A stretch of DNA of 20,829 nucleotides from a virus: the IMG/VR virus record IMGVR_UViG_3300010370_000302, positions 1-20,829 of that record. One strand, 5' to 3'. Both the position numbers and the translations under genes were made by a program. This document shows, one piece after another, positions 4,069 through 20,066 of the stretch (its first letter is position 1; each line of letters opens with the position of its first letter). Below the pieces are notes generated by a model. It did no database searches and had not been told where the DNA came from. It saw only the letters and a program-made list of their open reading frames with translations.

Positions 4069-4527
4069 ATGGCAGCACCGAAAGGTAATCAATGTTGGAT
4101 GCTCAGGCTGAAGCATGGGCTAGATGGCAAGTTCAAGACACCAGAGGAAATCCTTGAAAACTTTGAGCAGTATGTTCAGTGGGCTGAAGAAAACCCATTG
4201 ATTGAAGTAGACTTCAGGGGCAAGGATGCAACTGAGGTCAGGCTACCAAAAAAAAGGCTGCTGACCAAAGAAGGTTTTGCCCTTGCTTGTGGCTTCTCCT
4301 GCTGGACTAAGCTATCAGAGTACAAGACCAAATCAAAAGATTTCGGTAGTGTCTTTACACGCATAGAGCAAGCAATCTACACCAGCAAGCTAGAAGGGGC
4401 TGCAAGTGGGCTATTCAACCACAACATAATAGCCAGAGACCTTGGCCTGATGAACCAGGAGCAGGTCAACATGCAGGTCAATGAAGTAATCCTGCCTAAA
4501 GTCTTACGCAAGCCTGAGGCTGAGTAA
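4069..4527 (+). CDS. terS: Terminase small subunit, gp3-like
   Basis: The 152-residue protein has a helical N-terminal region and the motif LTKEGFALACGF around residues 65-76. A C-terminal stretch follows: EGAASGLFNHNIIARDLGL at about 115-133. This pattern is typical of the DNA-packaging protein gp3 family, including the P22-type small terminase. The subunit recognises the phage DNA to start packaging and regulates TerL. The stop overlaps the first base of the TerL start (TAATG), which fits the usual TerS-TerL pair. A packaging initiation site may lie in or near this gene but none can be identified by eye. Confidence 0.85.
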   Translation: MAAPKGNQCWMLRLKHGLDGKFKTPEEILENFEQYVQWAEENPLIEVDFRGKDATEVRLPKKRLLTKEGFALACGFSCWTKLSEYKTKSKDFGSVFTRIEQAIYTSKLEGAASGLFNHNIIARDLGLMNQEQVNMQVNEVILPKVLRKPEAE

Positions 4528-5861
4528 TGGCTCTCTATGACCTGTCCAGCGGTGAGCTGTGGAGTCAGAAGTATCTGCCTGCTCTTGTTGAGCCTAAGAC
4601 CTACAACATCCTATGGGGTGGGGCAGGAAGTGGCAAGAGTCAGACAATGATTCAGATATTTCTGAGCGAAATTATTGACAACAAGGCCAACCAATACCAG
4701 ACTTACTTTGTCATTCGAAAAGTTGCTGCTACCCTGAGAAACTCAGTCTTTGCTGACTTTCGCAATAAGATTAGCCAATGGGGCTTTGAGAAGCTAGTCA
4801 AGGCCAAGACAGGCTACCTTGAGCTGCAGTCAGGCACTAACCGGATAGTGTTCTTAGGCTGTGATGACCCTGAGAAGCTCAAGTCACTCTCTCAGGCTAA
4901 GTACATCTGGATAGAGGAAGCTACTGAGCTAAGCCTAGAGGACTTCACCCAGATAACCCTGCGTCTCAGGGGTAAGTCAGAGCAGCCAAAAAGATTCTTT
5001 TTGACCTTCAACCCGGTCTCCGATAGCCACTGGATTAAGAAGAGGTTCTTTGATGATGTGCCTGCCAAGGAGCAGAACCAGATACTTAGACTGCATGGCA
5101 CTTACCGGGATGCTCTGAACTTCCTTGATGATGAGTATGTCACAAGGATGGAGGCACTCAAGACAGTCAATCAGACCTATTATGAAGTCTATGCCCTTGG
5201 GCAGTGGGGAGTCTGGGATAGGGAGTCACTCTTTGCCTATACCTTTGACTACAGTAAGCATGTCTTTGGTGGCTACATCAAGGCCAATCCTGCCTACCCA
5301 CTCTATCTAGCCTTTGACTTCAATGTAACCAACACATGCGTAGTGTGCCAGTACATCAAGTATGGCAGTGAGGCAGCCAATTATGCCACCATTAATGTCC
5401 TCAAGACCTACCGGATAGGTGACCTTTCAACCCTGTGCCAGACCATTAAGCAGGAGTACCCAGACATGATGTATGTCATCAATGGGGATGCATCTGGAGC
5501 TGCAAGGAATGCCTTCACTCAAGGCAACATTAGTGCCTACCTAATCATCAAGAACTACCTACAGTTGGTGGACATGCAGCTGCAGATACCCAAGGTCAAC
5601 CCTAGCCACATTGCCAGCAGACTCATCACCATCCTGATCTTCCAGAAAGCAAAGATCACGATAAGTGAGAAGGCATGTGCTGCCCTGGTCACCGACCTTA
5701 AGGAGGCCAAGGTAGACAGGCAGGGTAGCCTTGATGCATGGAAGAACAAGAACCCAGACAAGTCACATGCACTAGATGCATTTAGGTATTTCATTTTTTC
5801 TAACTTTGCCGAAATCACCAGCAACTTCAATTTAGAAAAGTATGGCACTATGCTGCAATAA
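4527..5861 (+). CDS. terL: Terminase large subunit (PBSX-type ATPase-nuclease)
   Basis: The 444-residue product contains both motor and nuclease domains. Walker A is GGAGSGKS at about 31-38. Walker B is YIWIEEATEL at about 126-135, and the coupling motif TFNP is at 160-163. The RNase H-like nuclease domain shows its acidic residues at FDFN (D264), GDAS (D321) and HALDAFRY (D417). This is the Terminase_3/Terminase_3C (PBSX XtmB-like) layout. It cuts concatemeric DNA and pumps it through the portal. No residue of the active sites appears lost. The gene overlaps terS by 1 bp and the next gene by 20 bp. Confidence 0.95.
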   Translation: MALYDLSSGELWSQKYLPALVEPKTYNILWGGAGSGKSQTMIQIFLSEIIDNKANQYQTYFVIRKVAATLRNSVFADFRNKISQWGFEKLVKAKTGYLELQSGTNRIVFLGCDDPEKLKSLSQAKYIWIEEATELSLEDFTQITLRLRGKSEQPKRFFLTFNPVSDSHWIKKRFFDDVPAKEQNQILRLHGTYRDALNFLDDEYVTRMEALKTVNQTYYEVYALGQWGVWDRESLFAYTFDYSKHVFGGYIKANPAYPLYLAFDFNVTNTCVVCQYIKYGSEAANYATINVLKTYRIGDLSTLCQTIKQEYPDMMYVINGDASGAARNAFTQGNISAYLIIKNYLQLVDMQLQIPKVNPSHIASRLITILIFQKAKITISEKACAALVTDLKEAKVDRQGSLDAWKNKNPDKSHALDAFRYFIFSNFAEITSNFNLEKYGTMLQ

Positions 5862-6237
5862 CTGCTACCCTATCTGCCAGCCATTCAACAGCTGCCCTAC
5901 TGCTGTCTATATCTATCCACCAACAGGCTACTCTTCGGTGCTTGTTGACATCATTAAGCCCGGTGTTAATGTAGCCATTCAGCAGTTGCTCAGTGTTGGC
6001 ATTGATGGCTTTGTTGAGCTTGACATGGAGGGCTTACCAGAAGGATTCTTTAATGCCTATGCAGGCCAGTACAGCATAGGATTCATTGATCCAGATACTC
6101 ACCAGGTAATTGACTTCATGGGATTAGATGGCAAGATACATGACAGCATCTGCCTTACCTTTCAGGTAGCCTACACCAACCTAGAGACTAACATCATTGA
6201 AATAAACGCAATTAATAATGACACCCTTGAATTATGA
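5842..6237 (+). CDS. Cys-rich N-terminus protein of unknown function
   Basis: The 131-residue protein begins MALCCNNCYPICQPFNSCP, with five cysteines at residues 4, 5, 8, 12 and 18, suggesting a small metal site or disulfide knot. The rest is beta-rich (VYIYPPTGY, FVELDMEGLPEGFF, YSIGFIDPDT) and looks like a small structural domain. No family is recognised. Its place between terL and the tail-assembly genes suggests a virion or tail-related protein. It overlaps terL by 20 bp and the next gene by 4 bp (ATGA), so it is expressed with the structural genes. Confidence 0.6.
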   Translation: MALCCNNCYPICQPFNSCPTAVYIYPPTGYSSVLVDIIKPGVNVAIQQLLSVGIDGFVELDMEGLPEGFFNAYAGQYSIGFIDPDTHQVIDFMGLDGKIHDSICLTFQVAYTNLETNIIEINAINNDTLEL

Positions 6238-6629
6238 CATTGAATCTAGCTGCGGTGGCAAGCGTAGAGGCTGCTGCATTATCGAATTACCACACGATGC
6301 AGAGCCTACTGATGTTGCTGCTCATAGCTGCACTCAGCGCATCCTTCTCGTTGTTTCTGGATTACCTTCTGGAAGATCATCCATTGGGGCAGTGGTATCT
6401 CTCCCAAATCCAGAGGCTACCCATGAACTGGGCAAAGCCGCTGGGTGAATGTCCATTCTGCTCAGGTGCTTGGCAGTACCTGGTCATCAGCTATCTTATC
6501 TTTAATTACCCTTTCTACTTATGTTTAATTTTCTTAGGCGCAAACCATCTGTGCCTCCTCCTGCTCAACAAGTGGCAGAAGAAGCTACTCTACAAACAGA
6601 AGGTGGCAGAATTCTTTACAGGGGAGTAG
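6234..6629 (+). CDS. Membrane protein with CPFCSGAW motif
   Basis: The 131-residue product has hydrophobic segments at about residues 22-46 and 82-113, with the motif CPFCSGAW at 73-80 between them. The Cys-x-x-Cys before a membrane helix recalls small DUF1360-like membrane proteins, but I cannot assign the family firmly. An internal start at 6297 (MQSLLMLLL) would still keep both membrane segments; 6234 is chosen for its ATGA coupling to the preceding gene. The 3' 109 bp overlap the tail chaperone gene in another frame, which is unusually long for this compact genome. Confidence 0.6.
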   Translation: MTLNLAAVASVEAAALSNYHTMQSLLMLLLIAALSASFSLFLDYLLEDHPLGQWYLSQIQRLPMNWAKPLGECPFCSGAWQYLVISYLIFNYPFYLCLIFLGANHLCLLLLNKWQKKLLYKQKVAEFFTGE

Positions 6630-7273
6630 CCCCTAAGGACAGATGGGATCAGATTGAGTATGCCTTTACCTCTGGTGGAGTCAACTACTTTAGATTCTCA
6701 GCAGAAGTCAATGTGCCATTCCAGAGGGCAGTAGCTGCCAAGGACATCTTCACGGAGGAGCTTTGGCAAGTCAACCCTGACTATCTCCGGGCATGGAACA
6801 TTGGCCTTATCAACTTACTGACCGACCGGAAGAAGAAGGATGAAAAGAAGCTCTATGAGATAGGCATTCTGGCCTCCAGACTCAAGGAGCAGCTAGAGTT
6901 ATCCATGAGCATGACCAGGCAACTCAAGCTGGCAACAGTCCTCTACTTTGATGAGCATGAGAATCCACTAGACTATCAGTACCCATACAATAAGCAGAAG
7001 ATGGAGCATTGGATGAAGCACAATGATGTTGAGGGTTTTTTTTTGAAACTGCCAGAGTACGCCTATCTGCCCTCTTTGAAAGAATTCAGCACGAATTTCC
7101 CGACCTTTTTGCAGGCAGAAACTCAGGCAAGCCTAAACAACCTGAAACACATTACTTTACTGCTGTCACTAGACAACACCGAGAGCGATTTAACGAGCAG
7201 TTTACAATTACAAATGGAAGAGCTGGAGAGATTAAATACCTGGTCGAAAGGCCAATCTATGAGTACTACTTGA
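6521..7273 (+). CDS. Probable tail assembly chaperone, short (zero-frame) product
   Basis: The 250-residue zero-frame product begins MFNFLRRKPSVPPP and has a conserved-looking core LKLATVLYFDEHENPLDY at about residues 136-153. Position directly before the tape measure gene is where tailed phages encode the tail assembly chaperone (lambda gpG/gpGT analogues). At residues 172-174 the gene contains T9 (7036-7044), forming the heptamer T_TTT_TTT in the reading frame. A second, -1 frame opens there and runs to 7329. The short form would correspond to gpG. The family call comes from position and architecture, not from a recognised domain. The start overlaps the previous gene by 109 bp. Confidence 0.6.
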   Translation: MFNFLRRKPSVPPPAQQVAEEATLQTEGGRILYRGVAPKDRWDQIEYAFTSGGVNYFRFSAEVNVPFQRAVAAKDIFTEELWQVNPDYLRAWNIGLINLLTDRKKKDEKKLYEIGILASRLKEQLELSMSMTRQLKLATVLYFDEHENPLDYQYPYNKQKMEHWMKHNDVEGFFLKLPEYAYLPSLKEFSTNFPTFLQAETQASLNNLKHITLLLSLDNTESDLTSSLQLQMEELERLNTWSKGQSMSTT

Positions 7274-7329
7274 TATATAATGCCTATCTTGCGGACTTGA
7301 AAAAGAAGAGAAACAGAGTTAAGGGTTAG
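7033..7329 (+). CDS. -1 frame extension of the tail chaperone (gpGT-like product by frameshift)
   Basis: The -1 frame is closed by TGA at 7030-7032 and then open without an ATG from 7033 to a TAG at 7327-7329. After the slippery T9 it reads ETARVRLSALFERIQHEF and ends RPIYEYYLIYNAYLADLKKK plus a basic tail, a protein-like composition. It lacks a usable start, so translation would need slippage at 7036-7042, giving a fused product of about 269 residues. The stop lies 25 nt before a strong terminator, consistent with this being the true gene end. An alternative is a one-base homopolymer error in the assembly. Confidence 0.6.
   Translation, partial: GFFFETARVRLSALFERIQHEFPDLFAGRNSGKPKQPETHYFTAVTRQHRERFNEQFTITNGRAGEIKYLVERPIYEYYLIYNAYLADLKKKRNRVKG
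7036..7044 (+). promoter_or_regulatory. T9 slippery sequence (predicted programmed -1 frameshift site)
   Basis: In the chaperone frame the bases are GGT TTT TTT TTG, giving the canonical X_XXY_YYZ heptamer T_TTT_TTT at 7036-7042. A -1 slip joins the zero frame to the open -1 frame. No strong downstream stem-loop is obvious within 50 nt. Confidence 0.6.
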
Positions 7330-7354
7330 ATTAATGTTTGCTTCATGAGGAAAG

Positions 7355-7382
7355 AGCCATCCAATAGGGTGGCTTTTTTTTT
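7355..7382 (+). terminator. Intrinsic terminator after the tail chaperone gene
   Basis: AGCCATCC (7355-7362) pairs with GGGTGGCT (7367-7374) over 8 bp with one G-U pair around an AATA loop. Nine T residues (7374-7382) follow. It is 25 nt after the -1 frame stop and just before a -7-like element. Confidence 0.85.
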
Positions 7383-7385
7383 GGC

Positions 7386-7393
7386 TATCTTTG
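7386..7393 (+). promoter_or_regulatory. Candidate -7 element for the tape measure gene
   Basis: TATCTTTG matches TAnnTTTG, lies 3 nt after the terminator T tract and 17 nt before the tape measure ATG. No TTTG at the -33 distance is visible, so strength is uncertain. Confidence 0.45.
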
Positions 7394-7410
7394 GCGCAAA
7401 TAGTTAGCAC

Positions 7411-9900
7411 ATGGCAACTTCGACTAATGACATTAAGATTAGGTATGTTCTTGATACCAGCGACCTGAAGGAGGCAACACAGCAATTCGATAGACTATCG
7501 GCAGAGGAGAAGCAAGTTGCTCAACAGGCTGATAAACTTAAGACCAAATTTAAGGAGGTAGGTGATGAGGCGAAGAAGGGAGCTGATAAAGCGACCAAGG
7601 AGATGTCTGGCCTAGAGGAGCAGTTAGCTTCTATAGGTGGGATGGTGGCTGGAGTGTTTGCTGTTGAAGGGTTAATGGAGTTCGGTAAAGCTGTCTTTGG
7701 TGTGACTGCTACCTTTGAATCACTGCAGACAGTACTTAGCACAACTCTGGGAGGTAATGCTCCTGCTCTTAAGACCATGAAAATGATTAAGGAGGTGGCA
7801 GCAGCTACTCCTTTCTCGGTTGAAGAGCTTACTGCATCATTTGTTAAGTTAGCCAACCAAGGATTCAGACCAACATCTGAACAAATAGTAAAACTTGGTG
7901 ACCTTGCCTCATCAACTGGTAAGTCATTTGACATGCTAGCAGAGGCTGTTATTGATGCTCAGGTAGGCGAGTTTGAGCGACTAAAAGAGTTTGGCATAAG
8001 ATCAGCCAAGCAGGGTGACATGATTCAATTCACCTTTAAAGGTGTAACTACTGAAGTTAAGAACCAGTCAGAGGCCATTCAGCAATACCTGATTGGTCTT
8101 GGAGAAGTAGGTGGTGTAATGGGGTCAATGGAGGCTCAATCTAAGACACTTAATGGAGCTATAAGTAACCTTGGAGACACTTGGGATGGATTTCTCAATA
8201 ATGTGGGTACTAAACTTTATCCAGTATTTAGTAACACATTAATGTTAACTGCATCTTTTGTCAATGACTTTAACAAACTCTTTGGAATGATCAAGACTGA
8301 CAAAGAGAAGTTGAATGAGGCTGAGCTAGAAAGCTATGATAAAACTACAAAAGACTTGCAAAAGGCAAGTCTGAAGGCTATTGAGAATGCTCAAGCCAAC
8401 AATGCGAAAGCCTTAAAAGCAGCAGAGGAACAATTGAAAGAAGTAGAAACAAGGGTTAATGAGAGATATGTAGGCATGGTTAAGAAATCATTAGCCATAC
8501 CTGGAATAGGAATAGCAATAGCTCCTACTGTTGCAGCACTTGGCAAGTCAACAATGTTAGCTGGAGAAAAGGCAGAGGAAACTTTAGCCAATCAAGTAGC
8601 ATTACTGAGAGGGCAGTCATCTGCTCTTAATGATTTATATGTGGCAAAACTAAAGGATCAAAAAACCACAGAACAAACAACACAAGCTGATGCAAAGGCA
8701 AAAAAAGATGCAGCCGATAAGGCAAAAGCAGCTATTAGAGAAGCCTATCAGGATGAATTAAAGCTGGCTCAACTTGAGAAGGAAAGGCAACAGCTGCAGG
8801 CTAAGATTAATAATGACAAAGTAGAAGAGGTCGGGGCAGAGGCAGAGTACCAAGAGCGAGTGTTTCAGATTAAAACTAAGTACCTAAACAAAGGTGTTGG
8901 TCTTAAAAAGGAGGAGGTAGACAATGCAAAAATATCTGCCGAGCTATCAGCCAAAGCCTATGAGGAGGCATTTCAAAAGTCACTCATTAAGCCAAAGGAT
9001 GCTATATCAAAGTTCCAGAAAGACCTGACAAAGTCAGATGAGGAGGAGGAGAAGAAGAGGTATGACAACCGACTCAAGCAAATGAAGGCATGGCAGAAGG
9101 AGTATGAGAAAGGTTTGGAAGAAGAAAAGAAAGCCAGAGAAGCAGCAGAAGCTGACAAGCAAGCCAAGGTAGATGCAACATTTAGCCTGACTCAGAACCT
9201 TCTGGGCAACTTCAGCAGCCTTTACCAGACAAGCATCAACAATGAGATTGCTGCTATGAACAAGAGATATGACAATGAGATAGTTCTTGCTGAAGGCAAT
9301 GAGCAGAAGATTCAGGAGCTTAATAATCGAAGGGCAGAGGAGGAGAAGATGTTAAAGCAAAAGGCATTCAAAGCAGAGCAGGCTGCTGCTGTGGCTAAGG
9401 TTATATTTGAGACTGCAGCCATAGTTGCTAAGTGGGCAAGTAACCCGGTCACTGCTGGACTTGCTGCTTTGACACTAGCTAACCAGGCAGCACAGATAGG
9501 CTTTATTATGGCTCAGCCTGTACCAGAGTTTGCCGAGGGTACTAAGGGCAAGCCATTCAAAGGAGGTAGAGCAATGGTAGGTGAGCGAGGTGTTGAGAAG
9601 GTAGTGACTGCATCCGGCAAGGTCTACTTTACTCCACCGACTGCTACCCTGGTTGATCTCCCATCAGGCTCTCAGGTTATTCCTAACCATGCACTCAGCA
9701 AACAGGAACTATTCTGGGCAAGCCGGATGTCTGGAGGTAGTCAGGCCAGCAATCCAATGTATGGCAAGTTGGATGAGTTAGGTAGCATTCTCAAATCTCT
9801 ACCCATTACTCAGCTCAATATGGATGAGCGTGGATTTGAAAAGTATATTCGCACCGAAAGGAGGACTACTAAAATCCTCAACAATCGGTTCAGAAGCTGA
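7411..9900 (+). CDS. Tail tape measure protein
   Basis: The 829-residue protein is the tail-length ruler and a scaffold around which tube subunits assemble. Residues about 100-270 form a TMP_2-type domain with hallmark phrases: ATPFSVEELTASFVKLANQG, LGDLASSTGKSFDMLAEAV, GEFERLKEFGIRSAKQGD and GSMEAQSKTLNGAISNLGD. Long charged coiled coils fill about 420-625. Hydrophobic segments lie near 75-100, 360-385 and 655-700, and a Gly-rich segment (FAEGTKGKPFKGG) marks the C-terminal part, as in many tape measure proteins. The start is the first ATG after a terminator and a -7 element. The central part (about 8230-8760) is visibly more A-rich than the flanks, which may reflect lysine-rich coil coding or recombination. 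Confidence 0.92.
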   Translation: MATSTNDIKIRYVLDTSDLKEATQQFDRLSAEEKQVAQQADKLKTKFKEVGDEAKKGADKATKEMSGLEEQLASIGGMVAGVFAVEGLMEFGKAVFGVTATFESLQTVLSTTLGGNAPALKTMKMIKEVAAATPFSVEELTASFVKLANQGFRPTSEQIVKLGDLASSTGKSFDMLAEAVIDAQVGEFERLKEFGIRSAKQGDMIQFTFKGVTTEVKNQSEAIQQYLIGLGEVGGVMGSMEAQSKTLNGAISNLGDTWDGFLNNVGTKLYPVFSNTLMLTASFVNDFNKLFGMIKTDKEKLNEAELESYDKTTKDLQKASLKAIENAQANNAKALKAAEEQLKEVETRVNERYVGMVKKSLAIPGIGIAIAPTVAALGKSTMLAGEKAEETLANQVALLRGQSSALNDLYVAKLKDQKTTEQTTQADAKAKKDAADKAKAAIREAYQDELKLAQLEKERQQLQAKINNDKVEEVGAEAEYQERVFQIKTKYLNKGVGLKKEEVDNAKISAELSAKAYEEAFQKSLIKPKDAISKFQKDLTKSDEEEEKKRYDNRLKQMKAWQKEYEKGLEEEKKAREAAEADKQAKVDATFSLTQNLLGNFSSLYQTSINNEIAAMNKRYDNEIVLAEGNEQKIQELNNRRAEEEKMLKQKAFKAEQAAAVAKVIFETAAIVAKWASNPVTAGLAALTLANQAAQIGFIMAQPVPEFAEGTKGKPFKGGRAMVGERGVEKVVTASGKVYFTPPTATLVDLPSGSQVIPNHALSKQELFWASRMSGGSQASNPMYGKLDELGSILKSLPITQLNMDERGFEKYIRTERRTTKILNNRFRS

Positions 9901-9932
9901 TGTCATTTCTTATTGGTTTAGATTCCGAAAGT

Positions 9933-9961
9933 GCCTCTGTTCTACAGGGGCTTTTTCTTTT
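9933..9961 (+). terminator. Intrinsic terminator between tape measure and tail genes
   Basis: GCCTCTGT (9933-9940) and ACAGGGGC (9944-9951) pair over 8 bp with one G-U around a TCT loop. A T5-C-T5 tract (9952-9962) follows. It lies 33 nt after the tape measure stop and overlaps the start of the next -7-like element. Confidence 0.75.
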
Positions 9962-9969
9962 TACCTTTG
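9962..9969 (+). promoter_or_regulatory. Candidate -7 element for the tail gene at 9974
   Basis: TACCTTTG matches TAnnTTTG and ends only 4 nt before the ATG at 9974. With the usual spacing transcription would start at or near the start codon, implying a leaderless or almost leaderless message. No -33 box is visible. Confidence 0.35.
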
Positions 9970-9973
9970 CGAC

Positions 9974-12241
9974 ATGGCAGGCTGGAAGTTCTACTTAGAT
10001 GGCATAGAGGTCGAAGAGCCTATAGGCTGGGATGCAATTGAGTTCACTGCTCTCAGGATGGAAAGTCATGGCATTGACCAGCCATTCAGCACAGAGGTTA
10101 AGTTCTATGACAAAGGAGCTAGATACATTAAGAGCATCTTTGACCAGTATTACATCAATGAGCCTATTCTAATTAGAATTATTTCAGATGTTGGCTATAA
10201 TGGTCAGGACTATGAGTTTGTAGGATATCTTAATCTAGCCATCTATCAGGAGCATAATGTCTGCGATACCGACAGCTTTGAGGTCACTGTAGGTATCATT
10301 GATGACAACTTCCGGGAAGACTTCAAGGCCAGGCAGGATGTAGAGATAGACCTGACTGCCACTACTGATCTTAATGGTAATCCTATCAGTGCGATAACCT
10401 TCAAGAACATCAGGCTGCACAGGCAAGACCTTTACTTATCAGCCTTTGGCAAGAGTTATGCCGATAGGACTGCAGCTATCTATTGGTATGAAGCTTTAAT
10501 CATACCTACCTTCTGGCAGAATACTGACTTTACTGAGGAATATGGCAACACAGCTAACACTACCCAGACAACAATTAACTGGAATGCGGGGCAGTATGGT
10601 GACAGCGTAATATTCCAGAACAACACAAGCCTAACAAGGACATTTAGTGCCACCCATGACCTAACGGTCACAGTAGTCAATAATAATACCTTTAATACCA
10701 TTGATGTTTTTGTCTATCTGGCTACAATCAATGGCAATGTATTCGACACAGGCTACTACTTACTGAACACAACTCTTGCTGCCGGAGCTACCCAGACATG
10801 GACATTAGCTGGCACTATCAATAACATCAGCATACCTTCAGGTTATAAGCTACAGTATGCAGTTCAGGCTGGCTACACAGGTAACCCAAACACTGCAGAT
10901 GTCACTGTGCTTGAAAATGCAACCATAAAGTTTGAGGAAGTTAACTCAGGTGAGTATGCCAGCACTTGCAATGTCCTGACCATTGAGCAGTGGCTACGCA
11001 GGGCAATCTATGTGATGACTGGGAACAACAACATGCTGCTCTCTGATGTGTTCAGTGAGGCTGATGGTGGCTGCTATTGGAATAATGCCCTGACAACCGG
11101 AGCAAGGATAAGAGCGGTAGACCCTTTCTTTGGCTTCCAGACTTTGAAAACCACATGGAAGCAGGTCTTTGAAGGACTTGACCGAATCTTTTGCCTTGGT
11201 TGGGCATTTGAGTGGACAGGCTCACAGTGGAAAGTCAGAGTAGAACCTAGGGAGTACTTCTACCAGAACACCATCAGCCAGACCTTTACCAATGTTGGTG
11301 AGGTTAATCAGATGGCTAAGAGTCAAGACCTGGTTAATAATATTACCCTTGGCTTTTCTGATAAGTGGAAAAACATCCAGATTTCTGGAGCTTATGCCAT
11401 CCATACTGACCGGAATTACTTCATTGACAATCGGGCAATGACCGAGAATAGCACTGCTGCCCTTGATATTCGGAGCGACATAATAGCTGAAGGTTATTGC
11501 ATAGAGTTCAATCGTAGAGCATCAGCCATCACCAATGGAGGTGCTACATCTGACCGACCTAATGATTATGACACCTTCATTATCTGGCTCAACAGGCAGG
11601 AGATTGCTCTTGAAAATGTACAAGGCACTTGCTTTAACTTACCAGAGGAAACCGGATCAATAACCTTTGCCCCAGGAGAGGTGAGCATGCCCAGCAGTCT
11701 GATAGCCTTCAGCTCTGGGGTCATGCAGAACCTTTACAATATCTTCCACACTCCTGCCAGAGTAGGCATGAGGTGGTGGAAAGTGCTAGGCATGAACACT
11801 TACGGACTTGTGCCTACCAGCACAGGCAATCCAGTGCTGCAGTATCAGATAGGCGAGTATCAGACAAGCTACTATAGCCAGATAGATGACTCACAAGAGC
11901 CATGTCAGCAGTACCTTATTGATACCCCACTCTATGAGAATGTCAGCATAAGCCCAACAGTGCTGAGAGATGGGGCAAAGGAATACTTGTTCAAGCCTAT
12001 AGAGGTGCAGTTTAGCTATCCACAAAGTCTCTGTGATTTTTTAACTTTGTCGCAAGATGAGCAATACCGGCAAATCAGGCTCACTTCTGGAAGCTTAGAC
12101 ATCCAAGGCTTCATTACTGAGGCCAAGAATAAGCCAGAAGACTCTGCCGGAGGTACTACTACATTCACCTTGCTTGTTTCAGCACAGGATGCCTTGGCTG
12201 GCGGTGCATTCGATTCAGGCTATGACACAGGCTATGATTAA
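9974..12241 (+). CDS. Large tail or baseplate protein, 755 residues
   Basis: The chosen start (MAGWKFYLDGIEVEEPIGWD) is the ATG after the terminator and -7 element. An in-frame upstream ATG at 9824 would add 50 residues overlapping the tape measure gene and read through the terminator, so it is rejected. The N-terminal 120 residues form a compact beta-rich domain with FEVTVGIID. Residues about 195-322 are a Thr/Asn-rich beta-sandwich-like insertion, possibly carbohydrate binding. The C-terminal half is Trp- and Tyr-rich and ends with a GYDTGYD repeat. No family is recognised; position after the tape measure protein suggests a distal-tail or baseplate hub role. It overlaps the next gene by 1 bp (TAATG). 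Confidence 0.75.
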   Translation: MAGWKFYLDGIEVEEPIGWDAIEFTALRMESHGIDQPFSTEVKFYDKGARYIKSIFDQYYINEPILIRIISDVGYNGQDYEFVGYLNLAIYQEHNVCDTDSFEVTVGIIDDNFREDFKARQDVEIDLTATTDLNGNPISAITFKNIRLHRQDLYLSAFGKSYADRTAAIYWYEALIIPTFWQNTDFTEEYGNTANTTQTTINWNAGQYGDSVIFQNNTSLTRTFSATHDLTVTVVNNNTFNTIDVFVYLATINGNVFDTGYYLLNTTLAAGATQTWTLAGTINNISIPSGYKLQYAVQAGYTGNPNTADVTVLENATIKFEEVNSGEYASTCNVLTIEQWLRRAIYVMTGNNNMLLSDVFSEADGGCYWNNALTTGARIRAVDPFFGFQTLKTTWKQVFEGLDRIFCLGWAFEWTGSQWKVRVEPREYFYQNTISQTFTNVGEVNQMAKSQDLVNNITLGFSDKWKNIQISGAYAIHTDRNYFIDNRAMTENSTAALDIRSDIIAEGYCIEFNRRASAITNGGATSDRPNDYDTFIIWLNRQEIALENVQGTCFNLPEETGSITFAPGEVSMPSSLIAFSSGVMQNLYNIFHTPARVGMRWWKVLGMNTYGLVPTSTGNPVLQYQIGEYQTSYYSQIDDSQEPCQQYLIDTPLYENVSISPTVLRDGAKEYLFKPIEVQFSYPQSLCDFLTLSQDEQYRQIRLTSGSLDIQGFITEAKNKPEDSAGGTTTFTLLVSAQDALAGGAFDSGYDTGYD

Positions 12242-13950
12242 TGGCTAATGTAACCAGAGCGCAACTCAGCACCACTAGTGCAACTAACTTTCCAGACAAC
12301 ACATCACAGCTTATCTCTCCCTTTGACCTGAGAGACTGGATCACTGATGGCATTGATAGCTTTGTCACTCAGAAGGATGTCAGCACCTTCCAGAATGCAT
12401 TCTATGAGTGCAAGGGAAGCACACTGACAGCAGCAGCAACAGTTAACCTTGCGCTAGCTACAGGCAACTTTGTGCATGTCTCAGGCACTACTTCAATCAC
12501 AAGCTTTGGCACATTGCCAGCCGGAGCTAGGTTTATTCTATACTTTGAGGATGCAGTAGTAGTGACCTACAATGCCACTACACTCATCATCCCGGGAGCA
12601 GCCAACATCACCACGACAGCAGGAGACTGCATGATGGTCATTAGTGAAGGCTCTGGAAGCTGGAGGGTAGTAGGCTACTTTCCTGGCACTGGTTTGCCTG
12701 TAGGCACAATTACTGCTGTAACTGCATCTACTCCACTCAGCTCAACCGGAGGCAATGCTCCAGACATTAGCCTTGATACAGTAAGTCCAGACCCATCTGG
12801 AAGCTTCACAAATGCAAATATAACAGTAGATGCCTATGGAAGGGTGACTGCTGCTGCCAATGGCACAAATGGAGGCACTCCGGGAGGAGCTGACACTCAA
12901 ATTCAATACAACAATGGTGGTGCATTCGGTGGGGTAAGTGACCTGACTTGGGATGATGTAAACAATGTCCTGACAATTAACACTCCAAGAATCGGACAAA
13001 GCACTGGTAATGGTCACATGCACATGCATAGCATCAACACTAGTCCACCTTCAGGAGTCACTGACTATGTTACTCTATGGGCAGACAAGTCACCAAAGCA
13101 ATTTGGAGCAAGGTTTGAGACCGATGCATACACAAGTGCATTTCAATTCGGTGCTACTGCTGACAGGACTTACACTCTGCCTGATGAGTCTGGCAATGTA
13201 GTGCTTGACACAGCTACCCAGACTCTGACCAACAAGACACTTACAACTCCAGCCATAACTACCCCATCCATCACAGGCATTGCCACTCTGAACAATGGAG
13301 CAAGTGCAGGAGAGATAAGGCTCAGGGAAGGTTTAGGAGGTGGCACTAACTACACTGCAGTAAAGGCTGCAGCAACATTAGCAAGTGACTACTCACTAAC
13401 CTTACCAACAACTCAGGGAGGATCAGGTCAGGTGATTGTTAATGATGGCACAGGGCAATTAAGCTGGGCAAATAATGGAGGTGCAACAACAGGTAAGTTC
13501 TTATCTACTGTAGCCCCTGCAACTGTAACAGGCACAACTGCTGAGACCTTGCTTTCTGAATTGCTTATTCCTGCCAATACATTCACTTCAGGAGACTGTT
13601 TTACTATCCTATTCAGAGCCAGAAGGCTTAGTCAATTAGCTACCGATAGATGGAACTTTTACATCAGTAATCAATCAGGTGTGTTTAGTGGTAAACCTTT
13701 AATGGGTTTTCAGACCATTGGTAATATTAGTCAGTTTGGCATAACCTGTGAAAGAAATGTGACTATATATAATGCTACTACTACATATTATGTCAATAGT
13801 ACTGCGGCAAGATATGATGACTTTAACAATGACAACCTATCAAGCAGCAACATTGACTGGACAGTAGCTCAGTATATAATTATGACTTGTATTCCTGCTA
13901 CTGTAGGCCAGCAGATTTTCAATGTTTCCACCCATGTTTCTCCAAGATAA
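12241..13950 (+). CDS. Tail fiber or receptor-binding protein
   Basis: The 569-residue protein is built from Gly/Ala/Thr/Asn-rich beta segments typical of trimeric fibers. Motifs include GGADTQIQYNNGGAFGG near residue 220, with the phrase DLTWDDVNNVLTI after it. At about 320-345 lies TQTLTNKTLTTPAITTPSIT, widely seen in phage fiber shafts. A collar-like N-terminus (residues 1-45) could anchor it to the tail. The C-terminal third, from about residue 415, differs in base composition (AT-richer) and probably contains the host-binding tip. No S74-type chaperone domain is visible at the end, unlike many fibers. Host specificity is inferred only from the architecture. Confidence 0.8.
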   Translation: MANVTRAQLSTTSATNFPDNTSQLISPFDLRDWITDGIDSFVTQKDVSTFQNAFYECKGSTLTAAATVNLALATGNFVHVSGTTSITSFGTLPAGARFILYFEDAVVVTYNATTLIIPGAANITTTAGDCMMVISEGSGSWRVVGYFPGTGLPVGTITAVTASTPLSSTGGNAPDISLDTVSPDPSGSFTNANITVDAYGRVTAAANGTNGGTPGGADTQIQYNNGGAFGGVSDLTWDDVNNVLTINTPRIGQSTGNGHMHMHSINTSPPSGVTDYVTLWADKSPKQFGARFETDAYTSAFQFGATADRTYTLPDESGNVVLDTATQTLTNKTLTTPAITTPSITGIATLNNGASAGEIRLREGLGGGTNYTAVKAAATLASDYSLTLPTTQGGSGQVIVNDGTGQLSWANNGGATTGKFLSTVAPATVTGTTAETLLSELLIPANTFTSGDCFTILFRARRLSQLATDRWNFYISNQSGVFSGKPLMGFQTIGNISQFGITCERNVTIYNATTTYYVNSTAARYDDFNNDNLSSSNIDWTVAQYIIMTCIPATVGQQIFNVSTHVSPR

Positions 13951-14165
13951 TGTTTGAGTTTGACTATATAAAACCAATTGCTACCATTGAAGGAGTAAAG
14001 TATGAGGTTTATTACTTTGACAGATGTGCATCTAATTCAGTAACTATGTACATGAAAAATGATGATTATTTCTGGGGTACTAATGCGGTAGTTGAAGCAA
14101 CCATGATCAATGGGGTACTTCAGACATCGGTAGACATGATACTTGAGACTTTAGCCAATGGGTAA
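13950..14165 (+). CDS. Small hypothetical protein, 71 residues, next to the fiber gene
   Basis: The ATG at 13950 overlaps the fiber stop (TAATG) and is preferred to a frame extension back to 13887, which would overlap the fiber gene. The product begins MFEFDYIKPIATIEGVKYEV and is soluble, acidic and aromatic-rich. It is AT-richer than neighbouring genes, like the 3' end of the fiber gene. No family is recognised. By position it might be a fiber accessory or assembly factor, or part of an exchanged receptor-binding cassette. Confidence 0.6.
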   Translation: MFEFDYIKPIATIEGVKYEVYYFDRCASNSVTMYMKNDDYFWGTNAVVEATMINGVLQTSVDMILETLANG

Positions 14166-16329
14166 CGCACATCCTTTCTATAGATTTGAAAAGGCATGGA
14201 ATGCCGGATTTTACCCAGATAATCAGATAGTATCTGACATTCTGAATGAATTAAATCTGTCACTGACCTCATCACTGCCAACCATAGCAGTGGTAGGCAC
14301 TACAACAATCTATCAGCTGCGTAATTCGGTGCAGCAGGCTGTTGATGTTTACAATGCCTCTCCAATATTCGGAGAGCTTGTGGTTGACATGACTACTGCA
14401 CCTGATCCTCCGCTATGGGAGTATCACATCTATATACGCAATACTTCACTTTATCAAGTTGACAATAGCCAGATTCTTGAAGTCTATGGCAACTTCAATA
14501 ACACCACCAAGGTCATCACTTCAGCTAACATAGCAGCCTTCACTCCCGGCAGTTACTCAGGCACATTTGCTGCCCCATTAATTGCGGAAGAGCTAAAGGT
14601 AAAGGAGGCACTTAATGTGGTTAGCCTTAATGGCTCTGCTATCTTCCCGATTACCTACTCATTTGACCCATTGACTAACATAGCAACTTCTGGCCTAGCC
14701 AGGGGAAGCAATTGGCAGCTGCTCAATGATGAGATTAGCAGACTCCCTGCACCAACTGCACCTTACGAAAATCAAAGGCTATTCAGTCTGCCTCAGCTAA
14801 ACGGTGATGACAGCTATGTCCTGACCATCATGGACAGAATTATTGAGGCTAGTCTTAGTGATACTGACTGGACTAATTCGGTGCTAGCTACTTACTACAC
14901 ATTTGCAGCCAATGAGCCTGATGGCTGGATATTCAGCGTAAGCTCACCAGCATTTACTACCTATAGAAGAGCGCAGTTTACTTTCACCGATACTGGCAGA
15001 AGGAAGTTCATTCTGGTAGGCAGGCTGGATGGTCAATGGCTCTGGCAAAGGTTTGTTAGTGATCTAGCCGGAGGTGGTGCTGACTTCCTTACACTATACT
15101 CAGAGACTACTCCTTTGCCTTATGAACCTTATCAGGCTGGCAGATGGCTCTATGAATACTCCACCTATGACCTTGAGCAAGTAGAGTTCACATCAGGCTG
15201 TTATGTATCTCCTGAGTTCTATGCCATGCCGGCAAAGCCGGGAGACCAATGGCAGTTCAATGTAGTAGATGGCAACACGGAAGGCATAGTAAATGCCTTG
15301 GTTGGATTATTTACTGAGGAAGGTCAATTAGTCCAGCAGATAGGCACAGCTACCCTTCCAGATGATTGCAATAACACTCAGATGCAGGCATCAGTGACTA
15401 TTCCAAGTAAGACAGGCTGCTACCGGATGGGTCTGTATAACATAGGCACAGATGGTGGAGCAACTACATGCGAACTTGTGTTTAATTATCTCCTTGATGG
15501 TGGGGTTAATAATTATGTTGACCAGATAAATGAGAACTATGAGCTGCAATACTATTCATTTGCCCTGTTTGATGGCACTAACTATAGCCAAGTATACTCA
15601 ATACAAGTGCCTCCTGTAATTACTGGAGGCTTCACTCCGCAAGACATTGCAGACTGGAGCAACACAATTCCGGGCATGGTATGTGTCTATGATGAGGAGG
15701 GAGACACAATGGAGTGGACATGGACAGTGACAGTGGCCTGCAACACTAACTTCACCATGCGTAACTACATTATGGATGGTGATGGCAATGTGATTGATGG
15801 GCAATTCAGCACCGAATACCAGATGTGCATCTGTGAAGAGCCAGATGCAAGCCTATATGAACTTTATTCACTAAGCAACATAATTAACATTGATGCCTCT
15901 GACTGCTTCAGCACTATGCTGGAGTATTGGTCAGACAGCATCAGCATAGCAGAGGGATTTGAGTACACCGGAGGATGGAAGCAGAAGGTAAGGCTAGGCA
16001 TCAATGGTGGAGGGGCAAAGCCTCAGATAGAAGAGAGCCTATATAGGCAAAGCAATGGAGTCCATAGAAGGCCACAATCAAAGCAGGATTTATCCTTAGA
16101 TTTGCATACTGATTTTCTCGATGAGGCCACTCAGCTTGCTCTTGTCGATGCCACCCGGCATAGCTATCTGATATGGGAGGGAAAGTCAATCTTTGTGAAC
16201 GGTGACATTGAGGTAGCCACCACCCAAGACTTCACTACACAAAGTTCATTTGAGACTTTATCTCAAGTAAAGTTTCAGGCACTACTTCAGGGCTTTCAGC
16301 CCAAAAATTCAAGTTGTTTGAATTGCTAA
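14158..16329 (+). CDS. Large virion protein, probable baseplate or tail-tip component
   Basis: The 723-residue product has no signal peptide and is rich in Thr, Ser, Asn, Trp and Tyr, consistent with beta-structured virion proteins. Sub-regions include a region with NSAVLATYYTF-like segments (about 230-330), an Ig/jelly-roll-like part (about 400-470), and a C-terminal domain (about 595-723) with a TDFLDEATQLALVDATRHSY motif ending NSSCLNC. No named family is recognised. Its place between the fiber gene and the tail-tube candidate suggests a baseplate or tail-tip role. It overlaps the preceding small gene by 8 bp, so the start at 14158 is the first ATG available. Confidence 0.7.
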   Translation: MGNAHPFYRFEKAWNAGFYPDNQIVSDILNELNLSLTSSLPTIAVVGTTTIYQLRNSVQQAVDVYNASPIFGELVVDMTTAPDPPLWEYHIYIRNTSLYQVDNSQILEVYGNFNNTTKVITSANIAAFTPGSYSGTFAAPLIAEELKVKEALNVVSLNGSAIFPITYSFDPLTNIATSGLARGSNWQLLNDEISRLPAPTAPYENQRLFSLPQLNGDDSYVLTIMDRIIEASLSDTDWTNSVLATYYTFAANEPDGWIFSVSSPAFTTYRRAQFTFTDTGRRKFILVGRLDGQWLWQRFVSDLAGGGADFLTLYSETTPLPYEPYQAGRWLYEYSTYDLEQVEFTSGCYVSPEFYAMPAKPGDQWQFNVVDGNTEGIVNALVGLFTEEGQLVQQIGTATLPDDCNNTQMQASVTIPSKTGCYRMGLYNIGTDGGATTCELVFNYLLDGGVNNYVDQINENYELQYYSFALFDGTNYSQVYSIQVPPVITGGFTPQDIADWSNTIPGMVCVYDEEGDTMEWTWTVTVACNTNFTMRNYIMDGDGNVIDGQFSTEYQMCICEEPDASLYELYSLSNIINIDASDCFSTMLEYWSDSISIAEGFEYTGGWKQKVRLGINGGGAKPQIEESLYRQSNGVHRRPQSKQDLSLDLHTDFLDEATQLALVDATRHSYLIWEGKSIFVNGDIEVATTQDFTTQSSFETLSQVKFQALLQGFQPKNSSCLNC

Positions 16330-16333
16330 AACT

Positions 16334-17215
16334 ATGTCAATTTTCTCATTAACATGCCCCGATGTAGGGTGCTATCAGAACTTCCTCTGTGACCCAGAGT
16401 TTCAGAATAAGATTGTGGCGGTGGCTTATGTTCGTAAGTCTGCTGCCCTCACTGCTCAAGAGAAGTCTACTGCTGACCTTTGGATAGCAGCTCTCTATGA
16501 CCGTTACCTGAATGGCGAGGCTTACCTTGTATTCAATACCAGCGGTGAAAAGCCAAAACCTGAGACAGCTACTGTAGCTGGTAGGGGTATGCAGAACACT
16601 AAAGCTCTTGCAAAAACTCACACGCTGACCTATCAGGACATGCAGGGAGTTGTGCAGAACAATGTTCAGTTCTACAATGACATACTTGCTACTGCTCAGA
16701 ACTTCGACTTCTACTATTTCACTCCTGGTCGCATCTGGGATGCCTCTGGTTACTATGTGACTGTTATCGGTGATCCTATCATCACTGCTGACCTGAACAC
16801 TTATCAGATGGCTGAAGTGTCAGTAAACTGGGTTAGCAAGGTGAATCCATTGCCTTATGAGTTCGACACCGACACCTTCCTAGAAGGTCTGTATTACATC
16901 ATCTCTACCAATTACAATGGTAATAATGGATTTACTTGGACATCCGACTGCAGTAACCCACAAACTGCTGAGTTCTCAGCTGTGCTGAATGTAGGTGCTA
17001 TCTCTGGTGCGCCAGCTTTGGTGTGGTCAATTGATGCAGTAGCCGGAAGTGATGACATTACTCAGATTAATCTGGCAATTGATTCAGCAACTGGTGACCT
17101 GACTTGGAATCCTAATGGTTACATTGGAACTTATACCTTTGTGGTAACGGTTACCAATGGTTTTGGCTGTGTATTCGGTCAGCAGGAAGTTACTATCACT
17201 GTACTTTGCGACTAA
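16334..17215 (+). CDS. Putative major tail (tube) protein with C-terminal Ig-like domain
   Basis: The 293-residue protein has a compact N-terminal domain (about 1-180) and a C-terminal Ig-like or cadherin-like domain (about 210-293) with LVWSIDAVAG, DSATGDLTWNPNGYIGTYTF and a VTVTNGFGC strand. Tail-tube proteins in siphophages often carry such decorative Ig-like domains. Codon use in this gene looks somewhat different from neighbours, with more ACC, GGT and CTG, as expected for an abundant protein. Assignment as tube protein is therefore inference from size, domain layout and position. A decoration or capsid protein cannot be excluded. It lies 4 bp after the previous stop and 5 bp before the portal gene. 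Confidence 0.55.
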   Translation: MSIFSLTCPDVGCYQNFLCDPEFQNKIVAVAYVRKSAALTAQEKSTADLWIAALYDRYLNGEAYLVFNTSGEKPKPETATVAGRGMQNTKALAKTHTLTYQDMQGVVQNNVQFYNDILATAQNFDFYYFTPGRIWDASGYYVTVIGDPIITADLNTYQMAEVSVNWVSKVNPLPYEFDTDTFLEGLYYIISTNYNGNNGFTWTSDCSNPQTAEFSAVLNVGAISGAPALVWSIDAVAGSDDITQINLAIDSATGDLTWNPNGYIGTYTFVVTVTNGFGCVFGQQEVTITVLCD

Positions 17216-17220
17216 AATAA

Positions 17221-19203
17221 ATGGAAGAGATAATCGGGGTACTACTATCTAAGTTGCTTGACCGTGAGATTCGGGAAGGCAGGCACGATTACATTGAAGA
17301 GGCTAGAGAAAAGGCAGAAGAGCTGGAGTATCACTTCGAGAATGAGTACCCCGAGAAGCTCTTAATAACTCAGCATCCGAGTGAAGAGCCTTGGATGAGG
17401 GAGTACAGGAGGAAGAGATGGCAAGCTCCTACCACTACTGCCACCGGAAGAGTTTATACCTTCCTGCAAAAGATTCAGCAGGCTGATGACTTTAAGATCA
17501 AGTTTGAATCTGACTTCCAAAAGACAGGCATAGCAGAGCGCATAGGTCTCAATGACAACACTCTAGAGTACTATGTGGAGGAAGAGTTGCCAAAAACTGG
17601 TAGCCTGGAGAAGTGGCTATTTAATGTCTTCCTGAAGACCTATCTGATGGATGCAAATGCCATAGTAGTAACATTGCCAGACTATGATGACTTCATTGAA
17701 GACCCTAACAGTACCACTACCCTTGACTGGTCAAGACCTTACCCTCACATTATTGAGTCAGAAGACCTGATTTGGGAAGGTGAGGATTATGTCATCATAG
17801 AGGCTGAGGAGTATGTAGACATGAACCGTAAGAAGTGGGATCAATTCTTCTGCGTGACCACCCAAGGTCTGGTGTTGTTCAGGCAAGTCAATAGCTATAC
17901 CTATGACCAGCCATTTCAGGTCTTCATTCTGCCTTATGAGTTTGGCTATCTGCCTGTCTGTAAAGTAGGCAACATCATCTATGAGGAGGAGGATGGTCAA
18001 TTAGTTTATGATTCGGTACTTGCTCCTTGCCTTCCGGCATGGAATGAGGTACTATTTAGGACTGATGACCTGAACATACTTTGGGCAATGCATGCCCTGC
18101 CTCAGAAGTGGGCATTGAAGATGTCCCCTTGTAAGACCTGCAATGGCACAGGCATTAGGACTAACCGAAAGGAGGAGAAGGTAAGCTGTAATGATTGCTC
18201 TGGCTCTGGTAGAGCAAGCAGCTCACCATTCGGATTGATGGAGATTAACATTGACCGGGTCAGTGCAATTAATCCTAACCCACAGATACCACCAGTGCCT
18301 CCAGCTGGTTACATTGAGAGACCTACTGATACAGTCAGGCTATTCCAGGAAGACATCATACAAAAGGAGTTTCAAGGCTTTAAGGCTATAGGACTAGAGA
18401 TACTTAGCCAGATACCCATAGCTCAGTCAGGAATTGCTAAGGAGTATGACCGAAAGGAGCTGAACACCTTCTGCTTCTCTGTTTCGGTACATCTTGCTAG
18501 CATTTATCGCAAGATAAGCTACTATATCATGTATCAGAGGTACAACACTCTGTTCATGTCTGGCTTAATGGATGCGGACAAAGTCAAGGCAGCACTGCCA
18601 TCCATCACAGTGCCTACTGACTTTGACATCATGACCACCGAAATGGTCGGTGAGCAGCTTAATAAGGCTATTTCTGGCAAGTTCAATCCACTAATTATAG
18701 CCGGAATTGAGATGGATTATGTTGAGAAGTTGTATGGTGAGAATTCGATGAAGAAGACCTACCTAAAGCTACTAAGCAGCCTTGATCCATTGCCATTCAA
18801 GACCACCGATGAGAAGACAGTGTTGCTATCCAGCAATGGATGTACTCAATTAGACTACATTCTAAGTGCTAATCTTGCAGCATTTGTCATGCAAAAGGTC
18901 GAAGAAGACCCCTATTGGTATGATAAACCATTCAGCGAGCAGCAGGCTGATGTCTATGCTATGGCAGAGGAGAAGCAGGCACAGATAAAGTCAGGCATTG
19001 TTCCGTTAATGCCTGATGTGCCAACCGATATGCCAGCTGATAATCCAGATGAAGCAGAAGCAATGCCTCAAGATCAACTTGGCAAGCTCCCTTTAGCTAT
19101 ACAACAGCTGTCCAATGCTGCTGATAAGGCATCAAAGCTGGGCAATACCAAGCTTTTTGACAAGCTAAATGCTAAGATTGACTCTCTGATTAAGCAGATT
19201 TAA
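17221..19203 (+). CDS. Portal protein with DnaJ-like zinc-knuckle insertion
   Basis: The 660-residue protein has the length and layout of a phage portal: N-terminal charged helices, a beta-rich wing (about 140-300), the long stem/clip helices with DTVRLFQEDIIQKEFQGFKA and SGIAKEYDRKELNTF (about 368-432), and a Pro/Asp-rich C-terminal linker before a short helical end. An unusual insertion at about residues 304-330 contains CKTCNGTG and CNDCSGSG, two CxxCxGxG modules. The portal forms the dodecameric DNA channel at one capsid vertex and pairs with TerL. Identification rests on architecture and on the adjacent MuF-like gene with a TAATG overlap. The portal normally follows terL directly; here tail genes intervene. 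Confidence 0.75.
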   Translation: MEEIIGVLLSKLLDREIREGRHDYIEEAREKAEELEYHFENEYPEKLLITQHPSEEPWMREYRRKRWQAPTTTATGRVYTFLQKIQQADDFKIKFESDFQKTGIAERIGLNDNTLEYYVEEELPKTGSLEKWLFNVFLKTYLMDANAIVVTLPDYDDFIEDPNSTTTLDWSRPYPHIIESEDLIWEGEDYVIIEAEEYVDMNRKKWDQFFCVTTQGLVLFRQVNSYTYDQPFQVFILPYEFGYLPVCKVGNIIYEEEDGQLVYDSVLAPCLPAWNEVLFRTDDLNILWAMHALPQKWALKMSPCKTCNGTGIRTNRKEEKVSCNDCSGSGRASSSPFGLMEINIDRVSAINPNPQIPPVPPAGYIERPTDTVRLFQEDIIQKEFQGFKAIGLEILSQIPIAQSGIAKEYDRKELNTFCFSVSVHLASIYRKISYYIMYQRYNTLFMSGLMDADKVKAALPSITVPTDFDIMTTEMVGEQLNKAISGKFNPLIIAGIEMDYVEKLYGENSMKKTYLKLLSSLDPLPFKTTDEKTVLLSSNGCTQLDYILSANLAAFVMQKVEEDPYWYDKPFSEQQADVYAMAEEKQAQIKSGIVPLMPDVPTDMPADNPDEAEAMPQDQLGKLPLAIQQLSNAADKASKLGNTKLFDKLNAKIDSLIKQI

Positions 19204-20066
19204 TGGCTGCACAGCAGGACATTATTGAGAAAATACAGAAGCTACAGCTGGCAATTGAAAGCCGGATGGGCAATGCCCTTCCAAAGGTCTTTGAAAAGCT
19301 ATCTCAGCAAGTAATTGACCTGGCAAGTGAGCTTTCTCTTGACTCAAAAGACCGGGCAAAGACAATTAAGCAGCTAATAAAGCTCAAGCAGGACATTGCT
19401 GACACCATAATTAATAACCCTACCTACCAGACACAGGTAGCTGAGGTGCTGGCTGGATTCAATCTGCTGGCTACCTACAGCAATGAGTTTATAACCGAGT
19501 CAATAGGCGCATTTAAGCCTAAAACAGAACTATACAAGGCCATTCTGGAGGCTAACATAGCCACTACCAAGGATGCCCTGCTAGGTGCTGGCATCAGGGA
19601 GAACTTTGGCACAGCCATTCAGGAGGTGCTGAAGGATAACATAGCCGGAGTAGGCACACGCACCGAACTTAATAAGACCTTACGAAAGTTTATCGAAGGC
19701 ACTCCAGAGGAAGCTCCATTTCTAAACCGATACATCAAGCAGACTACCAATGATGCTGTGATGACATTCAATTCAGAGTACATTCAGACCATTAGTGATG
19801 ATCTTGGTGTAGAATACTACCTTTATGCAGGCACATTGATAGCTGATTCAAGGCCATTCTGCGAGGCCAGAGCTGGCAGATACTTCACCAAGGAAGAGGT
19901 GCAGAAGTGGGCAGACCTTAAGAACTGGGATGGTCGAATGAAAGGCACTAACAGCACCACCATCTTTACCTACCGAGGTGGCTATAATTGCCGGCATCAG
20001 CTATGGCCTGTAAGCCAGGAGCAGTATGAGGCTGCAAAGGAGAAGGGCAGAGCTGGCCTGAAGTAA
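19203..20066 (+). CDS. MuF-like minor head protein
   Basis: The N-terminal two-thirds (about residues 1-200) are helical. The C-terminal part has the SPP1 gp7/Mu F signature: ADSRPFCEARAGRYFTKEEV at about 214-233, WDG near 242-244, and the terminal RGGYNCRHQLWPV at 258-270. Such proteins bind the portal or enter the capsid during head assembly and infection. The start overlaps the portal stop by 1 bp (TAATGG), the common portal-MuF coupling. The gene ends 7 bp before the stop of a gene on the opposite strand. No toxin-like C-terminal extension is present, so this is a bare MuF domain protein of typical size. Confidence 0.85.
   Translation: MAAQQDIIEKIQKLQLAIESRMGNALPKVFEKLSQQVIDLASELSLDSKDRAKTIKQLIKLKQDIADTIINNPTYQTQVAEVLAGFNLLATYSNEFITESIGAFKPKTELYKAILEANIATTKDALLGAGIRENFGTAIQEVLKDNIAGVGTRTELNKTLRKFIEGTPEEAPFLNRYIKQTTNDAVMTFNSEYIQTISDDLGVEYYLYAGTLIADSRPFCEARAGRYFTKEEVQKWADLKNWDGRMKGTNSTTIFTYRGGYNCRHQLWPVSQEQYEAAKEKGRAGLK

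What the first reader, a model, noticed from the sequence alone, without database searches (positions are those of the whole stretch)
7033..7329. Probable programmed -1 frameshift at T9 in a tail-chaperone gene upstream of the tape measure protein
The zero frame from 6521 continues to 7273, but a -1 frame is open from 7033 to 7329 with no ATG, bounded 5' by TGA at 7030. The junction contains the canonical heptamer T_TTT_TTT in frame. The position directly before the tape measure gene is where lambda-like phages encode gpG/gpGT through such a shift. Both frames read like protein over about 229 nt, so this is a dual-coding segment giving products of about 250 and 269 residues. The extended frame ends 25 nt before a strong terminator, as a true gene end would. 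A one-T undercall is the main alternative, because 10 Ts would fuse the frames outright.
Basis: partly seen in the sequence, partly recalled or inferred. Interest (0 to 1): 0.85.

Follow-up and report, generated by a model that had tools for sequence, protein, structure and literature searches.

The report
Phage chaperone gene with two tails
A phage gene just in front of the tail ruler gene carries a run of nine Ts, the same in every relative that could be checked, at which reading can slip back by one base, so the same stretch of DNA encodes two different protein endings, a more extreme version of a trick many phages use to build tails of the right length.

Summary
The run is T9 at 7036-7044 (GGT TTT TTT TTG GA). 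About 85 distinct relatives covering the site all have exactly nine Ts, whereas the terminator T run just downstream varies from 6 to 9, so a one-T undercall is excluded for practical purposes. In 76 of 77 full genes (L013 is the exception) both frames stay open: the 0 frame for 76 (rarely 78) codons after the run, the -1 frame for 89-94. Simulation shows that neither single-frame model explains this; both frames are under purifying selection over about 228 nt. A tape measure gene follows in 73 of 75 relatives.

Best reading: a programmed -1 slip gives two tail-assembly-chaperone-like proteins that share 174 residues and differ in the tail (76 or 95 residues). A ribosomal slip is favoured: phage P2 uses GGT TTT TTG, the same site one TTT shorter, also without RNA structure. 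RNA polymerase slippage on T9 is not excluded.

In lambda and P2 the 0 frame ends 15-20 nt after the site; here 228 nt are dual-coding, so neither product is a truncation of the other. The protein matches no known family. New variant of a known kind.

The parts
6521..7270 (+). 0-frame product, 250 aa: shared 174-aa N-domain plus a 76-aa 0-frame tail (stop 7271-7273)
   Evidence: in relatives 76 (78 in four) codons after the run in 76 of 77 genes; purifying selection on the tail
7036..7044 (+). Slip site T9 (GGT TTT TTT TTG); holds in-phase T_TTT_TTT (7036-7042) and T_TTT_TTG (7039-7045)
   Evidence: invariant in 79 of 79 loci that cover it in the N-domain search and in all 85 covering the site in the pooled set; codons GGT (23% of Gly) and TTG (3.5% of Leu) used without exception
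7033..7329 (+). -1 frame: 94-aa tail after the slip, ending in TAG 7327-7329; no usable start codon
   Evidence: conserved as protein (mean pairwise identity 0.80 over the overlap)
7045..7273 (+). Dual-coding segment, both frames conserved
   Evidence: Position-specific variability, stop-free in both frames in 76 relatives, simulation of single-frame models
7356..7382 (+). Intrinsic terminator between this gene and the tape measure gene
   Evidence: hairpin followed by a T run of 6-9 seen in relatives
7411..9900 (+). Tape measure protein, 829 aa
   Evidence: PHROG tail length tape measure families 5062 and 1716 (E 4e-38, 5e-36); lies downstream in 73 of 75 relatives
6521..6629 (+). 109-nt overlap of the 5' end of this gene with the preceding ORF 6234-6629
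   Evidence: Overlap of exactly 109 nt in 76 of 77 relatives, with variability shifted away from codon position 3

Best explanation
The gene at 6521-7329 makes two proteins that share 174 residues. Most translations continue in the 0 frame (250 aa). A fraction slip back one base on GGT TTT TTT TTG and finish in the -1 frame (269 aa). The slip is most likely ribosomal, with the tRNAs re-pairing on T_TTT_TTT and/or T_TTT_TTG as in P2 E/E+E'. By position and architecture the products most likely act as tail assembly chaperones: the common domain would bind the tape measure protein encoded next, and the two alternative tails would divide the roles that gpG and gpGT play in lambda. Shown here: the run, both frames, their joint conservation, the synteny. 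Inferred: that the slip occurs, its level (ribosome rather than polymerase, about 60:35) and the chaperone role.
For: T9 invariant in every relative covering the site, although Gly and Phe wobble positions elsewhere in the gene vary freely (1 of 19 four-fold and 3 of 48 two-fold invariant-residue codons are wobble-invariant). The site uses TTG, 3.5% of Leu codons in this gene. Both tails are under purifying selection: observed identity 0.82 (0 frame) and 0.80 (-1 frame) with no stops in 76 genes, while matched single-frame simulations give about 0.65-0.72 for the silent frame and stops in tens of genes. The -1 frame has no start. A tape measure gene follows in 73 of 75. P2 uses GGT TTT TTG in the equivalent gene directly before its tape measure gene, with no RNA structure (PMC3091744); none is found here either.
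Against: No sequence match to any chaperone family. No recognisable major tail protein gene upstream. The structure models are too poor to use (pLDDT 42 and 57). U_UUU_UUU is a weak ribosomal shift site in E. coli tests (PMC5009743), and no stimulator was found. The 0-frame tail is far longer than in known G/GT pairs.
Confidence: 0.75

Rival explanations
1. Transcriptional slippage: RNA polymerase adds a U on T9, so some mRNAs carry U10 and are read into the -1 frame in the ordinary way. mRNAs with U8 would meet TGA at once and give a 174-aa core protein as a third product.
For: T9 is the length at which slippage avoidance shows in many bacterial genomes, and 9A/9T runs are used in IS elements (PMC1088944); Tn with n > 8 is cited for slippage (PMC3711429). 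Insertion at a run of Us joins the two frames of mxiE. No RNA structure here. The +1 frame stop directly after the run is present in all relatives. The length is exactly nine everywhere.
Against: Ts 8-9 are also held by the two coding frames, so invariance of all nine does not separate the mechanisms. All G/GT shifts described in the papers read here are treated as ribosomal, and P2 uses GGT TTT TTG.
Confidence: 0.33
2. The shift and both products are real but the gene is not a tail assembly chaperone; it has another role in tail assembly or in the host.
For: No family match; no tail tube gene upstream; the neighbours upstream are unknown ORFs.
Against: Sits immediately before the tape measure gene in 73 of 75 relatives, and a -1 shift at that place is the hallmark of G/GT pairs, whose sequences are known to be dissimilar between phages (PMC5009743).
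Confidence: 0.2
3. Sequencing or assembly error: the true run is T10 and there is one continuous frame.
For: Homopolymers are error-prone; one relative, L013, has a fused frame.
Against: T9 in every other assembly while neighbouring T runs vary in length. A single frame would not keep the 0-frame tail of 76 codons conserved. L013 is fused by a different insertion about 20 nt downstream and still has T9.
Confidence: 0.01
4. Replication slippage makes the run a phase-variable switch between T9 and T10 genomes.
For: Homopolymers are used this way in bacteria (PMC3711429).
Against: No T8 or T10 member among about 85.
Confidence: 0.02

Closest known systems
Phage P2 gpE / gpE+E' (FETUD operon)
   Same: -1 shift on GGT TTT TTG (here GGT TTT TTT TTG) in the gene directly before the tape measure gene; no RNA structure downstream
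   Different: In P2 the 0 frame stops about 20 nt after the site, so E is nearly a prefix of E+E'; here 76 more 0-frame codons follow. No sequence similarity was detected.
Phage lambda gpG / gpGT
   Same: -1 shift giving two products with a common N-terminus, gene directly before the tape measure gene (PMC5009743)
   Different: Slip site G_GGA_AAG; the 0 frame ends about 15 nt after it; lambda has the tail tube gene V upstream, not seen here.
Shigella mxiE (transcriptional slippage at a run of Us)
   Same: A run of Us joins two overlapping frames into a longer product (PMC1088944)
   Different: Unrelated protein; there slippage is shown at the RNA level, here it is not tested.

Membership tests
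G/GT-type tail assembly chaperone with -1 frameshift | Lies immediately before the tape measure gene | tested here: met
   Tape measure PHROGs; 73 of 75 relatives
G/GT-type tail assembly chaperone with -1 frameshift | Second ORF in the -1 frame, without its own start, overlapping the first | tested here: met
G/GT-type tail assembly chaperone with -1 frameshift | Conserved slippery sequence at the junction | tested here: met
   T9 invariant
[quoted passage not shown] PRFect training mean 26 nt) | tested here: not met
   228 nt here; 26 nt mean in PMC10885494; about 15-20 nt in lambda and P2
G/GT-type tail assembly chaperone with -1 frameshift | Preceded by the major tail protein gene | tested here: inconclusive
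   The upstream ORFs 5842-6237 and 6234-6629 match no family
G/GT-type tail assembly chaperone with -1 frameshift | Sequence or fold match to known chaperone families (not strictly defining: these proteins are known to be dissimilar between phages) | tested here: not met
   models of low confidence
G/GT-type tail assembly chaperone with -1 frameshift | Both products made in a set ratio, bind the tape measure protein, absent from virions | not testable with these tools
   Needs expression data
Programmed transcriptional slippage | Run of nine or more A or T in the overlap, conserved | tested here: met
   length criterion from PMC1088944
Programmed transcriptional slippage | mRNA heterogeneous in run length | not testable with these tools
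   No RNA data

The most novel reading that the evidence does not exclude
A tail chaperone that bifurcates rather than extends: two full, separately conserved tails of similar size from one dual-coded stretch, produced by RNA polymerase slippage at T9 rather than by the ribosome, with a possible third, tail-less product from U8 transcripts.
Probability: 0.25. Interest if true: 0.75.

Novelty: new variant of a known kind. Interest (0 to 1): 0.5.

Why it matters
Lambda's short product is in effect a prefix of the long one, and the ratio of the two sets tail assembly. Here selection keeps two different tails, so the short form cannot be a mere truncation; that lets one ask what the 0-frame tail does. 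It also gives an unusually clean natural case, over 80 homologues with a 228-nt dual-coding stretch, for telling ribosomal from transcriptional slippage on T9, and it adds an unnamed protein family to the pre-tape-measure position.

Tried and rejected
Sequencing error, phase variation and a chance ORF were rejected. A downstream stem-loop or pseudoknot as stimulator: none found, consensus -3.5 kcal/mol and window z-scores near zero; Rfam gave nothing above threshold. Family identity by Pfam, PHROGs and PDB, tblastn in phages, blastn in plasmids: nothing. Host search in genome contigs with this protein and with the portal protein: nothing. AlphaFold of the 0-frame product and of the -1 tail: low confidence; Foldseek with the latter gave no hit. 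The Flavobacterium phage whose tape measure is most similar (pippi8-1) was inspected through its annotation only; tblastn of the fusion finds no relative in it.

Full report
Observation. The window holds a 250-codon 0-frame ORF (6521-7273). T9 lies at 7036-7044 inside it, read GGT TTT TTT TTG. From 7033 the -1 frame is open to TAG 7327-7329. The -1 frame starts after TGA 7030-7032 and has no ATG or GTG; TTG occurs only near its end. A slip at the run gives 269 aa. The window is a virus record of 20,829 bases.

Homologues. A search with the shared N-domain only (so not selected for anything downstream) returned 80 loci in viral contigs, 79-95% identical in that domain. Each was read at the equivalent position without assuming the site: 79 of 79 that cover it have GG-T9-GA; one contig ends before it. 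Pooling three searches gave 86 distinct contexts, of which the 85 that cover the site have the same T9. Among 77 distinct full genes (collected by that site and therefore not independent proof of it), 72 have the 0-frame stop 76 codons after the run, four have it at 78, and the -1 frame is open for 89-94 codons; one gene is an exception. The search keeps the nearest 80 per query, so more distant members may differ.

The exception, L013, has an extra base about 20 nt after T9, which puts the -1 tail into the main frame (274 aa). Its T9 is kept, and a recognisable remnant of the old 0-frame tail persists without its usual stop. It is one contig; it may be a true variant or an assembly error.

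The T count. In 75 relatives the longest T run within 90 nt after the -1 stop, mostly that of the terminator, is 6 in 43, 7 in 15, 8 in 3 and 9 in 14, so these assemblies do report other lengths. Constancy at nine in the gene is therefore selection and not a sequencing habit.

Dual coding. In the gene upstream of the run, variability is 0.105, 0.041, 0.359 at codon positions 1-3; in the overlap it is 0.080, 0.132, 0.207, the pattern of two constrained frames. Mean pairwise amino-acid identity in the overlap is 0.82 (0 frame), 0.80 (-1) and 0.71 (+1), and the +1 frame is full of stops, 7-12 per gene. I simulated evolution along a tree built from the upstream region with only one frame constrained. 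Settings that match the nucleotide identity (about 0.86) and the identity of the constrained frame leave the other frame at about 0.65-0.72 and put stops into tens of the 76 genes; none is observed. The model is simple (consensus root, kappa 3), but the gap is large.

The site. Codon usage in this gene would put GGT at 23% of Gly and TTG at 3.5% of Leu, yet GGT and TTG are used without exception. Of 19 four-fold codons with an invariant residue only one has an invariant wobble base, and 3 of 48 two-fold codons. The first T, the free wobble of Gly, is thus selected for. Positions 8 and 9 of the run are also held by the two coding frames, so 'nine' rather than 'seven' cannot be used to tell ribosome from polymerase.

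Mechanism. For the ribosome: P2 shifts at TTTTTTG with no hairpin (PMC3091744), and reading the P2 record shows GGT TTT TTG in frame, directly before its tape measure gene. The window has the same site with one more TTT. No structure is predicted here either. Against: U_UUU_UUU is a weak site in E. coli (PMC5009743). For the polymerase: T9 is the length at which selection against slippage shows in many bacterial genomes (PMC1088944). A U8 transcript would end at TGA at once, since the +1 frame stops directly after the run in all relatives. I put the ribosome at about 60%, the polymerase at about 35%.

Function. The next gene is a tape measure protein by PHROG match, and this order holds in 73 of 75 relatives, with terminase upstream in 61. 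In lambda the gpG part binds the tape measure protein and the T part recruits the tail tube protein (PMC5009743). The protein itself has no match in Pfam, PHROGs, PDB or cultured phages, and structure prediction failed to reach useful confidence. 'Tail assembly chaperone' is therefore an inference from place and architecture.

What differs from known cases. In lambda the 0 frame ends about 15 nt after the site and in P2 about 20 nt; the mean in the PRFect training set is 26 nt (PMC10885494). Here it is 228 nt. The two products therefore have two different, separately conserved tails of 76 and 95 residues. I know of no described chaperone with so long a dual-coded tail, but a full literature check was not possible (subscription papers, including the P2 original, are not held).

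Noticed in passing
window 6234-6629 and 6521-6629: The ORF before the chaperone-like gene (hydrophobic, CPFC motif, weak DUF1360 resemblance) overlaps its 5' end by exactly 109 nt in 76 of 77 relatives, and variability there is shifted away from codon position 3; so the gene is dual-coded at both ends.
   Followed up: partly
window 7356-7382: An intrinsic terminator separates the chaperone-like gene from the tape measure gene; a hairpin with a T run of 6-9 recurs in relatives, which suggests that the tape measure gene has its own promoter or depends on read-through.
   Followed up: partly
L013:426-1247: A natural variant (or assembly error) in which the -1 tail lies in one continuous frame with the N-domain; its tail is only about 44-47% identical to the window's, against 64-80% for the others.
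   Followed up: partly
window 17221-19203: The portal-like protein carries a DnaJ-type CxxCxGxG zinc-finger-like stretch at about residues 300-333, unusual for a portal.
   Followed up: no
window 4527-20066: Unusual gene order: large terminase, then chaperone-like gene and tape measure, further tail genes, and only then the portal-like gene. 16334-17215 ends in an Ig-like domain and may be the tail tube protein.
   Followed up: no
L016, L018, L026, L027, L039, L061, L074, L075, L136, about 290 nt after the slip site: Nine relatives share a second T9 (TTTTTTTTTGTGT) just after the -1 stop and upstream of the terminator hairpin; role unknown.
   Followed up: no
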